The position numbers and the translations under genes were made by a program. A stretch of DNA of 64,000 nucleotides from a virus, in the IMG/VR virus record IMGVR_UViG_3300009183_000002, positions 18,434 through 82,433 of that record; one strand, 5' to 3'. Shown piece by piece: positions 4,708 to 53,550 of this stretch (positions within the stretch are counted from its first letter, which is position 1; the number at the start of each line of letters is the position of its first letter). The notes beneath the pieces were generated by a model, which was not told where the DNA came from, ran no database searches, and saw nothing but the letters and a program-made list of their open reading frames with translations.

Positions 4708-5082
4708 ATGATGCACGGCGCTGCTGGCTTCTTAGATAGCTTCGTTCAAGACGAAGTTAAATGCCGTTGTCTTGATGAAGAAGATTTTGGTCAACCCATC
4801 GATAACGAAGAAAATGATGTACCCTTGTATGACATGTACAACAGGGGTTTAGCAGCATGCGAACAGGGAATGGAACGGACGAATCTGGGGCTGGAAGGGA
4901 ATCCAGCGTTGCAGGGCCAAAGGCCGGGAATGACTGGGTATATTCCTTCGATGGAGGAAGCACTGGAACAGTATCCGGGATCTTCACCCAAACCCAAGGC
5001 GTTAATGATTGCACTACCTTCGGCGGACAAGATGGAGCAGGAACAACTGCTGTCACAAAAACGCCGTGGTTTGAGCCGGTAG
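4708..5082 (+). CDS. Hypothetical protein, possible 5' part of a frameshifted DUF3310 gene
   Basis: 124 residues with a normal-looking composition to its end (MHGAAGFLDSFVQDEVKCRC at the start). The last 226 nt overlap the next frame, which encodes the DUF3310 domain. In that overlap this frame looks like real protein while the other frame looks like a shadow, until about 5060, where the other frame becomes convincing. A tract with five consecutive A residues (codons CAA AAA C, near 5056-5064) lies 5' of this stop and could allow a -1 slip that fuses the two. Confidence 0.6.
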   Translation: MMHGAAGFLDSFVQDEVKCRCLDEEDFGQPIDNEENDVPLYDMYNRGLAACEQGMERTNLGLEGNPALQGQRPGMTGYIPSMEEALEQYPGSSPKPKALMIALPSADKMEQEQLLSQKRRGLSR

Positions 5083-50732: not shown

Positions 50733-50966
50733 ATGTCTTACGTCATTGCGTGTTACCAGGATGGCATCCCGCATGCCATCTCGGCCAACCGTCAATCCAA
50801 TGCATTTGAATTGGTACCACTCGATTCAGATACTGCTCTGAATAAAATCTTCTCTCATCCTTACCGTGCGGGTGCACAACAAATCCTGACTTGGATCAAT
50901 AAAAATGACGCAGCCCTTGCCGGTAATGAATTCGAAGTTTGCGACGAAGCCAAGTTCCGCAAATGA
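50733..50966 (+). CDS. Small early protein overlapping the DNA polymerase start
   Basis: 77 residues (SYVIACYQDGIPHAISANRQ, then KIFSHPYRAGAQQILTWINK). Its last 62 bases overlap the polymerase frame, or 41 if the polymerase starts at 50926. Compact alpha/beta-like pattern; family unknown. No SD. Confidence 0.6.
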   Translation: MSYVIACYQDGIPHAISANRQSNAFELVPLDSDTALNKIFSHPYRAGAQQILTWINKNDAALAGNEFEVCDEAKFRK

Positions 50967-53550
50967 ATCTTGGTTGATCTTCGATTGTGAAACCAACGGG
51001 CTTTATGATCAGGCAACTGTTGTCTATTGCATTGTTGTATATGACATCACAAAGCAACAAACTTTTACTTATGGGCCTGACAGCATTACTGCTGCTCTTG
51101 CTCATCTGGCAGCTGCCGATGTACTCATTGGCCACAATGTAATTTTTTATGACATACCAGTTTTACAAAAGTTACACAACTTTCAACACAACGCACGTGT
51201 CTTAGACACACTCATCTGTACCAGATTGATCTGGCCCAAAGAACTACTCTATGAACTTGATACAGAACAATATACGGAAGTTCCACCGAAGTTACGTGGT
51301 TCTGCCGGACTCAAAGCGTGGGGTTGGCGACTCGCTGATCACAAGATTAACTTCAAAGATTTCTCGCACTACTCAGAAGAAATGCTGCAGTACTGCGTCC
51401 AAGACGTTGAGGTTACAAAGAAACTTTGGGAACACATTTGCAAACAAGACTATCCAGAACCTGCACTCAAAGTTGAGCACGACTTTGCCTTGGCAATTAA
51501 TAAACAAATTAGAGCAGGCATTCCTTTTGATGTGGATGCAGCTCTTGATCTTGTGGATGTGTTACGAGCAAAGCAAGCAGACCTCGAAAGTCAACTGAAA
51601 CAAATCTTCCCACCTATTGAACACAGCGATTGGTTCACGCCAAAAGTAAACAACACTACCCGAGGTTATGTCAAAGGAGTTCCGTATGAAAAAATTCGAA
51701 TCGAAGAATTTAATCCTGGATCTCGTCAACAAATTGTCGATAGGCTCAAGTCCAAGTATGGATGGCAACCTGAAAAGACAACTGAAAAAGGAAACCCAAT
51801 CCTTGATGATGAGGTACTTGAACGATTGCCTTACCCAGAAGCAAAGCCTTTAGCGGAATACATGCTAGTCAAGAAACGACTAGGTCAAATTGCAGATGGA
51901 AACAATGCTTGGCTCAAGCTTGTTAACAATGAAGATGGTCGCATGCATGGTGATGTAGTTACTAACGGTTGTATTACCGGGCGTTGTGCGCATCGATTTC
52001 CAAACATGGGTCAAGTTCCAGCAGGTTATTCACCCTATGGACATGAATGCCGCAGTCTGTTTCATGCGCCAGACGATTGGAATCTTATTGGTATTGATGC
52101 AAAAGCATTAGAGCTACGTTGTCTTGCTGGATATCTAGCCCTGTGGGATAACGGTGAATATGCTTCTATGGTTATCAATCCTGAAGTAGATATCCATAGT
52201 TACAACCAAGAACAATTTGGTGTGGCTACCAGGGATATTAGTAAACGTTTACTGTATTGTGTACCCGTGGATAGTACTCAAGTACTTACAAAAACAGGAT
52301 GGAAAAAATATGAAGAATTAAACATTGGAGAATTAGTGTTGACTTATAACGAAGAAAAAGAAATTAAAGAATGGAAACCTATTCTTGAAATTATTAACGC
52401 ATATGAAGATGATGTTTGGCAGATGCAACACAACCATTCTTTTTGTGTGCAGTCAACCTTAGAACATCGTTGGTATGTTAAAAAACGTAAACGAAATAAC
52501 AGTGCACAATGCGGATGGGAAACTGGAAAAAACTATATGCTTTCCAAAGTAGAAACCACTGCTGAAATCAATACTGAATCAAACATTATTGTTAACGCTC
52601 TTTTAATAGAAGAAGAACATGAAGGCATTGAAGTTGATTGGACATGGCGCAAATACAGAACAAATTGGACAGAAAAAATATTACAAATGAATTCAAAACA
52701 ACGCAAAGCTTGGTTGTCAGGTTTTTTGTTGGCAGATGGTTTTCAATCTTGTAAACCAAACCAAAAAGAAAAATGGCATTGGACACAAGTTCGCAATGAA
52801 CACTATGAAGCAGCGTTACTAGCAAGTTATCTTGAATTTCCTGGCGTTATTCATGTTTCAAAGCCACGTCTAAATCCCAGTGGAAAAACGCAAATGCATG
52901 TAAGCATTGCAAATAAAGGACATGTAACAGGACAGAAGCTACAAAAAACATATGTTGGCCGCAAACAAGTTTTTTGTATTGCAACTGAAAATAAATCTTT
53001 TGTTATGCGCCAAGGTGATTGTATTACCATTACTGGAAATTGTATTTTATACGGGGGTGGTGCAGTTAAAGCAGGTACAATTATTGACCCGGATGAAAAA
53101 AGTGAAGTAGTTCTTAGGAAACTAGGAAGTACTGCAATTAATTCATTCATGAAAGGTGTGCCTGCACTTAAAAAACTAAAACAACAACTGGAGGAAACTG
53201 TTGGTACTCGTGGTTATCTTATCGGCCTTGATCGTCGGACGTTACATTGTCGTTCCGCTTTTAAAGCATTGAATGTTTTATTACAATCATCAGGAGCAAT
53301 CTTGATGAAACAAGTTGTTACATTCACGCAACGTAACATTGAACAAAACCTTGGCTTGGTGCACGGCCAGGATTGGGAGCAACTCCTAATGGTGCACGAT
53401 GAAATCCAGATTGCTTGCAAGCCTCAACACACCGAAGTAATTCGGGAACAGGCTATGATGGCATTCCCTCAGGCCCAGGAGTTCTTTGGCTTCCGTTGTC
53501 TTATTGAAGGTGACAGCAGAGTCGGGCACAACTGGTCAGAGACTCACTAA
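50905..53550 (+). CDS. DNA polymerase I (family A) with an intein in motif B
   Basis: 881 residues with the intein. Exonuclease motifs: LIFDCETNG near 24-32, LIGHNVIFYDIP near 73-84 and YCVQDVEVT near 163-171. Polymerase motif A DAKALELRC near 397, motif B RDISKRLLY...CILYGGG across the intein, and motif C MVHDEIQI with Asp832. T7-type replicative polymerase. The intein (residues 452-712) must be spliced out for activity. Start taken as ATG 50905; 50926 is an alternative. Confidence 0.93.
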   Translation: MTQPLPVMNSKFATKPSSANESWLIFDCETNGLYDQATVVYCIVVYDITKQQTFTYGPDSITAALAHLAAADVLIGHNVIFYDIPVLQKLHNFQHNARVLDTLICTRLIWPKELLYELDTEQYTEVPPKLRGSAGLKAWGWRLADHKINFKDFSHYSEEMLQYCVQDVEVTKKLWEHICKQDYPEPALKVEHDFALAINKQIRAGIPFDVDAALDLVDVLRAKQADLESQLKQIFPPIEHSDWFTPKVNNTTRGYVKGVPYEKIRIEEFNPGSRQQIVDRLKSKYGWQPEKTTEKGNPILDDEVLERLPYPEAKPLAEYMLVKKRLGQIADGNNAWLKLVNNEDGRMHGDVVTNGCITGRCAHRFPNMGQVPAGYSPYGHECRSLFHAPDDWNLIGIDAKALELRCLAGYLALWDNGEYASMVINPEVDIHSYNQEQFGVATRDISKRLLYCVPVDSTQVLTKTGWKKYEELNIGELVLTYNEEKEIKEWKPILEIINAYEDDVWQMQHNHSFCVQSTLEHRWYVKKRKRNNSAQCGWETGKNYMLSKVETTAEINTESNIIVNALLIEEEHEGIEVDWTWRKYRTNWTEKILQMNSKQRKAWLSGFLLADGFQSCKPNQKEKWHWTQVRNEHYEAALLASYLEFPGVIHVSKPRLNPSGKTQMHVSIANKGHVTGQKLQKTYVGRKQVFCIATENKSFVMRQGDCITITGNCILYGGGAVKAGTIIDPDEKSEVVLRKLGSTAINSFMKGVPALKKLKQQLEETVGTRGYLIGLDRRTLHCRSAFKALNVLLQSSGAILMKQVVTFTQRNIEQNLGLVHGQDWEQLLMVHDEIQIACKPQHTEVIREQAMMAFPQAQEFFGFRCLIEGDSRVGHNWSETH
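52258..53040 (+). other. Intein inside DNA polymerase I, motif B
   Basis: 261 residues in frame. Starts Cys-VPVDSTQVLTKTGWKKYEEL (N1 block), has the N3 T-x-x-H as QSTLEHRWYVK, a DOD-type homing-endonuclease-like segment (AWLSGFLLADGF, near residue 600 of the whole), and ends SFVMRQGDCITITGN before +1 Cys. The penultimate residue is Gly instead of His. It interrupts the O-helix motif right before the LYG, so host-free polymerase would be inactive until splicing. One DOD motif only: an endonuclease remnant or minimised form. Confidence 0.9.

What the first reader, a model, noticed from the sequence alone, without database searches (positions are those of the whole stretch)
52258..53040. Intein in the O-helix motif of DNA polymerase I, with a Gly-Asn end and a single DOD motif
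Complete splicing blocks are visible (N1 start, T-x-x-H, C-terminal ...GN+C), inserted between KRLLY and the CILYGGG of motif B, so splicing is needed for polymerase function. The penultimate residue is Gly where inteins usually have His, which can slow splicing. Only one LAGLIDADG-like segment is seen, so the endonuclease may be decaying.
Basis: partly seen in the sequence, partly recalled or inferred. Interest (0 to 1): 0.6.

Follow-up and report, generated by a model that had tools for sequence, protein, structure and literature searches.

The report
Mobile intein in cyanophage DNA polymerase
A freshwater cyanobacterial virus carries a self-removing protein insert (an intein) inside the active site of its DNA polymerase, and relatives show that this kind of insert, with an unusually small half-sized DNA-cutting domain, is well preserved and has recently jumped between viruses rather than decaying.

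Summary
It lies after the residue matching T7 Y526 in the O-helix; about 20 related polymerases, including S-EIV1, lack it.

Two interpretations fail. (1) Gly-Asn is no sign of damage: it is invariant in 14 related phage inteins across polymerase, terminase and portal hosts. In a published phage intein with penultimate Gly, changing it to His slowed splicing (PMC5050341). (2) The single-DOD endonuclease is not visibly decaying. Its region has dN/dS 0.07-0.22, like the splicing domain; the motif Gly and Asp are invariant to 35-37% identity; and one relative's intein is 98.1% identical between phages whose polymerases are only 66% identical, so it moved recently. The single motif matches the second repeat of two-motif polymerase inteins.

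The homologous intein sits at two motif B sites exactly one codon apart, and in phi92-like phages at motif A. Splicing, cleavage and homodimerisation are inferred. This is a new variant of a known kind, of moderate interest.

The parts
50905..53550 (+). polA: family A DNA polymerase precursor interrupted by the intein (881 aa)
   Evidence: one open frame; phrog_17 E=1e-109 and PF00476; 67% identity to S-EIV1 PolA
50905..52257 (+). N-extein (451 aa; 3'-5' exonuclease and polymerase up to ...RDISKRLLY)
   Evidence: alignment with intein-free relatives and with T7 polymerase via S-EIV1
52258..53040 (+). intein, 261 aa (C1 ... N261)
   Evidence: boundaries fixed by empty alleles and conserved ends
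52258..52296 (+). splicing block A; Cys1 nucleophile at 52258-52260
   Evidence: C1 invariant in 11 aligned inteins
52456..52473 (+). splicing block B: T67-x-x-H70-R-W72 (B:7, B:10, B:12)
   Evidence: H70 and W72 invariant, T67 nearly invariant, in 11 inteins of 25-82% identity to the window
52612..52953 (+). endonuclease region (about residues 119-232): one LAGLIDADG-type repeat, predicted alpha-beta-beta-alpha-beta-beta
   Evidence: AF2 models; matches the second repeat of the nieznany intein best; dN/dS
52714..52740 (+). LAGLIDADG motif L-S-G-F-L-L-A-D-G (residues 153-161; putative catalytic D160 at 52735-52737)
   Evidence: G155, A159, D160 and G161 invariant in 10 single-motif inteins
52969..53001 (+). 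splicing block F: V238-F-C240-I...; Cys at F:4 (52975-52977)
   Evidence: C240 invariant in 11 inteins
53023..53040 (+). splicing block G: I-T-I-T259-G260-N261
   Evidence: T259, G260 and N261 invariant in 11 inteins
53041..53550 (+). C-extein, starting with +1 Cys (CILYGGG...), rest of the polymerase, stop included

Best explanation
This is a functional, mobile, phage-borne intein in the O-helix of a cyanophage replicative polymerase. After translation the Hint domain should excise itself and join Y526 to the +1 Cys, restoring motif B (KRLLY-CILYGGG). Cys1 most probably starts the reaction (class 1 route). An invariant block F Cys (C240) sits close to the active site, and Asn261 cyclises without a neighbouring His. 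The embedded nuclease is a single LAGLIDADG repeat, equivalent to the second half of two-repeat relatives. It most likely works as a homodimer that cuts intein-free polA, so that repair copies in the intein. Shown from sequence: boundaries, empty alleles, conserved catalytic residues, purifying selection, recent lateral transfer of a close relative, and two insertion sites one codon apart. Inferred: splicing itself (about 0.9), initiation from Cys1 (about 0.7), endonuclease activity somewhere in the clade (about 0.65), and the homodimer (about 0.5).
For: Exact empty alleles in S-EIV1 and 19 relatives. C1, H70, W72, C240, T259, G260 and N261 are invariant in 11 inteins of 25-82% identity to the window. 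The AF2 model has pLDDT 85; Foldseek finds endonuclease-bearing inteins in PDB (TliVMA, E=6.5e-8) and a phi92-like polymerase intein in BFVD (TM 0.86). A profile of the family finds solved inteins (Spl DnaX 2.7e-6, NrdJ-1 1.6e-4). Endonuclease-region dN/dS is 0.065-0.22 in the diverged cyanophage pairs and 0.033 in phi92-like phages, as low as the splicing domain. L003 and L005 inteins are 98.1% identical in DNA against 65.5% (N-extein) and 67.1% (C-extein), with a sharp left edge and a right flank that tapers over about 45 codons, as co-conversion would leave. Extein and intein trees disagree. Intein GC is 34.6% against 43% in the exteins.
Against: No experiment. No DNA-level palindrome was found at the insertion sites, so the homodimer has no independent support. 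Sequence matches of the endonuclease region alone to LAGLIDADG families are weak (I-AniI E=0.44, PF14528 E=0.028), and Foldseek on it alone gives I-SceI at only E=0.022. Lateral transfer could follow ordinary recombination rather than cutting. The L003 and L005 contigs are metagenome assemblies. L032 has a frameshift near the intein end.
Confidence: 0.72

Rival explanations
1. One reading: a slowly splicing intein (Gly for penultimate His) whose endonuclease is decaying.
For: Penultimate residue is Gly and one DOD motif is present, the second repeat being absent. In some published inteins without the His, restoring it improved splicing (cited in PMC5050341).
Against: TGN is invariant across 14 relatives in polymerases, terminases and a portal. 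In a phage intein with penultimate Gly, Gly-to-His slowed splicing (PMC5050341). AceL NrdHF lacks both helper histidines and splices within minutes (PMC7891396). Endonuclease-region dN/dS equals that of the splicing domain; recent transfer of a single-motif relative.
Confidence: 0.08
2. The single LAGLIDADG repeat no longer cuts but is kept for another role (folding or stability of the Hint domain, or DNA binding); spread is by ordinary homologous recombination between co-infecting phages.
For: No palindromic target; HEN-less mini-inteins exist in the family (L050, Herod), so the domain is dispensable for splicing somewhere; a similarity drop at both edges also fits a small recombination tract.
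Against: Motif Gly and Asp are invariant at 35-37% identity. Mini-inteins show that the Hint domain does not need the repeat. The very sharp left edge at the intein start is better explained by homing than by random crossovers.
Confidence: 0.22
3. The intein splices by the class 3 route, or by both: C240 (F:4) attacks the N-junction, with Cys1 dispensable.
For: All three class 3 signature residues W72-C240-T259 are present and invariant in 11 relatives and in terminase and portal inteins of Gordonia and Mycobacterium phages.
Against: Cys1 is invariant too, which would be odd if dispensable; class 3 sets were defined by lack of Cys1 (PMC7891396); F:4 is commonly Cys in inteins generally (PMC4031507); +1 is Cys whereas class 3 nearly always has Ser or Thr (PMC5222942); the family profile's best solved relative is DnaX rather than the class 3 AceL NrdHF.
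Confidence: 0.15
4. The polymerase ORF is simply inactivated or the insert is a non-splicing domain.
For: No experimental data on this protein.
Against: One continuous frame at the same gene position in a phage replication region next to the SSB gene; all splicing residues conserved; extein residues conserved on both sides.
Confidence: 0.03

Closest known systems
PolA intein of phi92-like Escherichia and Klebsiella phages (Justusliebigvirus PaulScherrer bas60_0044, KP13-16, ZCKP1)
   Same: Homologous over the full length (37-40% identity, 245 aa), single LAGLIDADG repeat, Cys1, W, F:4 Cys, TGN end, +1 Cys, host gene polA; annotated as an intein in GenBank
   Different: Inserted at motif A (ESHY/CWRYEQ), not motif B
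PolA intein of Phapecoctavirus nieznany (and relatives nepoznato, AV126)
   Same: Motif B of PolA, 36% identity over shared parts, Cys1/W/C/TGN
   Different: 324 aa with two LAGLIDADG motifs; site one residue further (KYG/CTYG); the window intein lacks the first repeat
Mycobacteriophage RDF and TerL class 1 inteins with penultimate Gly (PMC5050341)
   Same: Phage-borne, Gly-Asn end; the RDF intein splices completely
   Different: Other host genes; RDF residues beyond the Gly not compared here
Class 3 inteins (MP-Be DnaB, Msm DnaB-1, Bvi IcmO, AceL NrdHF)
   Same: W at B:12 (Met in AceL NrdHF), Cys at F:4, Thr at G:5
   Different: Cys1 present here, absent by definition in class 3; +1 is Cys, rare in class 3
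Single-repeat LAGLIDADG homing endonucleases that act as homodimers (I-CreI type)
   Same: One LAGLIDADG motif per chain with motif Gly and Asp kept
   Different: Those named in PMC3943268 are organellar or archaeal, intron-type enzymes; here the repeat lies inside an intein; dimerisation and cutting untested

Membership tests
Intein (class 1) | In-frame insert with N-terminal Cys/Ser/Thr, block B T-x-x-H, terminal Asn and +1 Cys/Ser/Thr | tested here: met
   C1, T67-x-x-H70, N261, +1 C
Intein (class 1) | Intein-free alleles of the host gene that align without a gap when the insert is left out | tested here: met
   S-EIV1 and 19 IMG/VR relatives
Intein (class 1) | Hint fold | tested here: met
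   AF2 model pLDDT 85; Foldseek hits to solved inteins
Intein (class 1) | Penultimate His (usual, not obligatory) | tested here: not met
   Gly260, shared by all relatives aligned
Intein (class 1) | Self-splicing that requires Cys1 | not testable with these tools
   needs expression and mutagenesis
Class 3 intein | W B:12, C F:4, T G:5 triplet | tested here: met
   W72, C240, T259 invariant in 11 inteins
Class 3 intein | No nucleophile at position 1 | tested here: not met
   Cys1 invariant; definition in PMC7891396 and PMC5222942
Class 3 intein | Splicing depends on Cys F:4 and forms a block F branched intermediate | not testable with these tools
   needs C240A and C1A mutants
LAGLIDADG homing endonuclease | LAGLIDADG motif with conserved Gly and catalytic Asp | tested here: met
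   L153-G161; G155 and D160 invariant in 10 inteins
LAGLIDADG homing endonuclease | Alpha-beta-beta-alpha-beta-beta-alpha repeat fold | tested here: inconclusive
   secondary structure order fits, but the last helix is low confidence and Foldseek on the domain alone is weak (I-SceI E=0.022)
LAGLIDADG homing endonuclease | Two repeats in one chain, as in characterised intein endonucleases (expectation from my own knowledge) | tested here: not met
   one repeat only; the first repeat of the nieznany intein has no counterpart
LAGLIDADG homing endonuclease | Cleaves the intein-free target | not testable with these tools
   no assay; no palindrome found
Mobile (homing) intein | Patchy distribution and tree conflict with the host gene | tested here: met
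   98% identical inteins in 66% identical polymerases; conflicting trees

The most novel reading that the evidence does not exclude
A broad phage intein lineage keeps both Cys1 and the complete class 3 W-C-T set, so splicing can start from either cysteine: a natural intermediate between class 1 and class 3 that has been argued to be improbable (PMC7664689). In its cyanophage branch it moves by means of a single-repeat, homodimeric LAGLIDADG nuclease that tolerates insertion one codon away from its former site.
Probability: 0.13. Interest if true: 0.65.

Novelty: new variant of a known kind. Interest (0 to 1): 0.4.

Why it matters
If the single-repeat nuclease cuts, it would be a half-size homing enzyme inside an intein and a natural test of how two-repeat LAGLIDADG enzymes can shrink and stay mobile. 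Cys1 together with all class 3 residues makes the origin of class 3 inteins directly testable with two point mutants. Two insertion sites one codon apart give a case for studying how an intein changes site inside an essential active-site motif. The practical lesson is that Gly-Asn ends in phage inteins should not be read as signs of weak splicing.

Tried and rejected
Decay of the endonuclease: rejected on dN/dS, invariant motif residues and recent transfer. Gly-Asn as a defect: rejected on family-wide conservation and published data. Plain filing as class 3 on the WCT triplet: rejected because Cys1 is present and invariant, and because the family profile is not closest to solved class 3 inteins. 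Palindromic target as support for a homodimer: scanned, nothing above shuffles. Relatives in bacterial and archaeal genomes (genome contigs): 118 pattern matches, none confirmed, so the family was found only in phages and viral contigs here. Rooting the one-codon shift: the splicing-domain tree is too weakly supported to say which of the two motif B sites is ancestral. Pfam and NCBIfam give no usable hit to the intein alone. A first query was mistyped. Searches of the held papers found nothing on single-LAGLIDADG inteins or on phage polA O-helix inteins; the key class 3 papers of 2010 and 2011 are not held.

Full report
What is there. The window is part of an 82.4 kb IMG/VR virus record. Its polymerase ORF (50905-53550, 881 aa) is family A. 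The nearest named relative is Synechococcus phage S-EIV1 (67% identity over the exteins), an isolate from a high Arctic lake in Canada whose polymerase has no insert. Left out, the flanks read KRLLY-CILYGGG; twenty intein-free relatives read KRLLY[A/G]xxYGxG at the same place. Aligned through S-EIV1 to T7 polymerase (6n7w), the cut falls between Y526 and G527, inside the O-helix. That the polymerase needs splicing is an inference from this position.

Splicing signals. Against 10 relatives of 25-82% identity, the invariant columns are C1, H70, W72, G161, V238, C240, T243, T259, G260 and N261. Two points follow. First, Gly-Asn is the family rule. It is kept in polymerase inteins of cyanophages, coliphages, Klebsiella, Pseudomonas and Acinetobacter phages, in a 174-aa mini-intein (L050), and in Gordonia and Mycobacterium phage inteins in TerL, a portal protein and an unnamed protein. 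In a mycobacteriophage RDF intein with penultimate Gly, the native form spliced completely and the Gly-to-His mutant was slowed (PMC5050341); the same paper notes mixed outcomes in other inteins. AceL NrdHF lacks both helper histidines and splices within minutes (PMC7891396). Second, W72, C240 and T259 occupy B:12, F:4 and G:5, the class 3 triplet (PMC5222942). Class 3 is also defined by a missing N-terminal nucleophile (PMC7891396), and here Cys1 is invariant, so the intein fails that membership test. Cys at F:4 is common in inteins in general (PMC4031507). I therefore call it class 1 with class 3-like active-site residues. The initiating cysteine is an open, easily tested question. From memory (paper not held), Tori and Perler 2011 treated inteins carrying both the triplet and a position-1 nucleophile, so the combination may not be unprecedented.

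Endonuclease. There is one LAGLIDADG segment (LSGFLLADG, residues 153-161). The AF2 model of the whole intein (pLDDT 85) places after it strand-strand-helix-strand-strand, the order of one LAGLIDADG repeat, and there is no room for a second. Foldseek with the full model finds endonuclease-bearing inteins (TliVMA E=6.5e-8) and, among viral models, the phi92-like ZCKP1 polymerase intein (TM 0.86). The domain alone gives only weak LAGLIDADG hits. Compared with a two-motif polymerase intein (nieznany, 324 aa), the single repeat aligns with the second one (14.3 against 3.6 bits; full-length profile alignment with a gap over the first repeat). The simplest history is loss of the first repeat. The single-repeat form is shared by phi92-like phages at a different insertion site and 37-40% identity, so it is old and stable.

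Not decaying. In eight cyanophage inteins the endonuclease region has dN/dS 0.065-0.22 in the diverged pairs, as low as the splicing region; dS is often above 1, so these are rough. The near-identical pairs have too few changes to judge. In phi92-like phages it is 0.033 for both regions. The intein also moves. L003 and L005 come from different metagenomes; their inteins are 98.1% identical in DNA, while their exteins are 65.5% and 67.1% identical and other parts of the contigs about 70-75% with a few short better segments. The left edge is sharp and identity tapers over about 45 codons on the right, the pattern expected of homing with co-conversion. Extein and intein trees disagree accordingly. 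Which enzyme made the break is not shown.

Insertion sites. The window, L002 and L030 carry the intein as Y/C (526/527); L003-L006 and L032 as YA/C (527/528), one codon later, with unchanged total extein length. Other family members use 527/528 (nieznany, Herod, L050), a site about three residues earlier (KIL3, judged by eye) and motif A (phi92-like, Y/CWRY). All have Cys at +1, and one intein-free allele (L022, YACLYGAG) already has Cys at 528. The order of events is unresolved because support in the splicing-domain tree is low. Joined sites show no dyad symmetry above shuffles, so the homodimer idea rests on the single repeat alone.

Verdict. A real, well-bounded polymerase intein with close and distant phage relatives. 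No inteins of this kind were found in cellular genomes. Literature searches in the held library found no treatment of single-LAGLIDADG inteins or of phage polA O-helix inteins; GenBank already annotates the phi92-like relative as an intein. Hence a new variant of a known kind, of moderate interest.

Noticed in passing
L050:3001-3522 (IMGVR_UViG_3300010935_000138): A 174-aa mini-intein without endonuclease at the YA/C motif B site of another phage polymerase, with the same Cys1, HRW, VWC and TITGN residues.
   Followed up: partly
L003 and L005 against each other, L003:4001-4783: Inteins 98% identical in polymerases only 66% identical: a recent transfer event.
   Followed up: yes
L036:2796-3908 and L037:2847-3917: Vibrio phages 249E41-1 and VnaP have the polymerase broken over several ORFs with a separate two-LAGLIDADG intein-like ORF after it; possibly a fractured or trans-splicing gene, or debris.
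   Followed up: no
L027:4775-5359: A free-standing HNH-like endonuclease ORF overlaps the end of polA in an intein-free S-EIV1 relative (identified by eye only).
   Followed up: no
L051, L052, L058 (Gordonia and Mycobacterium phage inteins): The Cys1 plus W-C-T plus TGN combination also occurs in terminase, portal and an unnamed protein's inteins, so it marks a broad phage intein lineage.
   Followed up: partly
L032 near 4738-4750 and L025 upstream of 4802: Reading-frame breaks: near the end of an otherwise intact intein (L032) and in the front half of an intein-free polA (L025); may be sequencing errors.
   Followed up: no
L040:600-3040: Desulfovibrio phage ProddE polA is annotated as containing an intron.
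   Followed up: no
L035:3001-3993: Pseudomonas phage KIL3 (flagged as joined from two pieces in GenBank) carries a 331-aa two-motif intein at another O-helix position (RKDGKT/CNYASVYNAG).
   Followed up: partly
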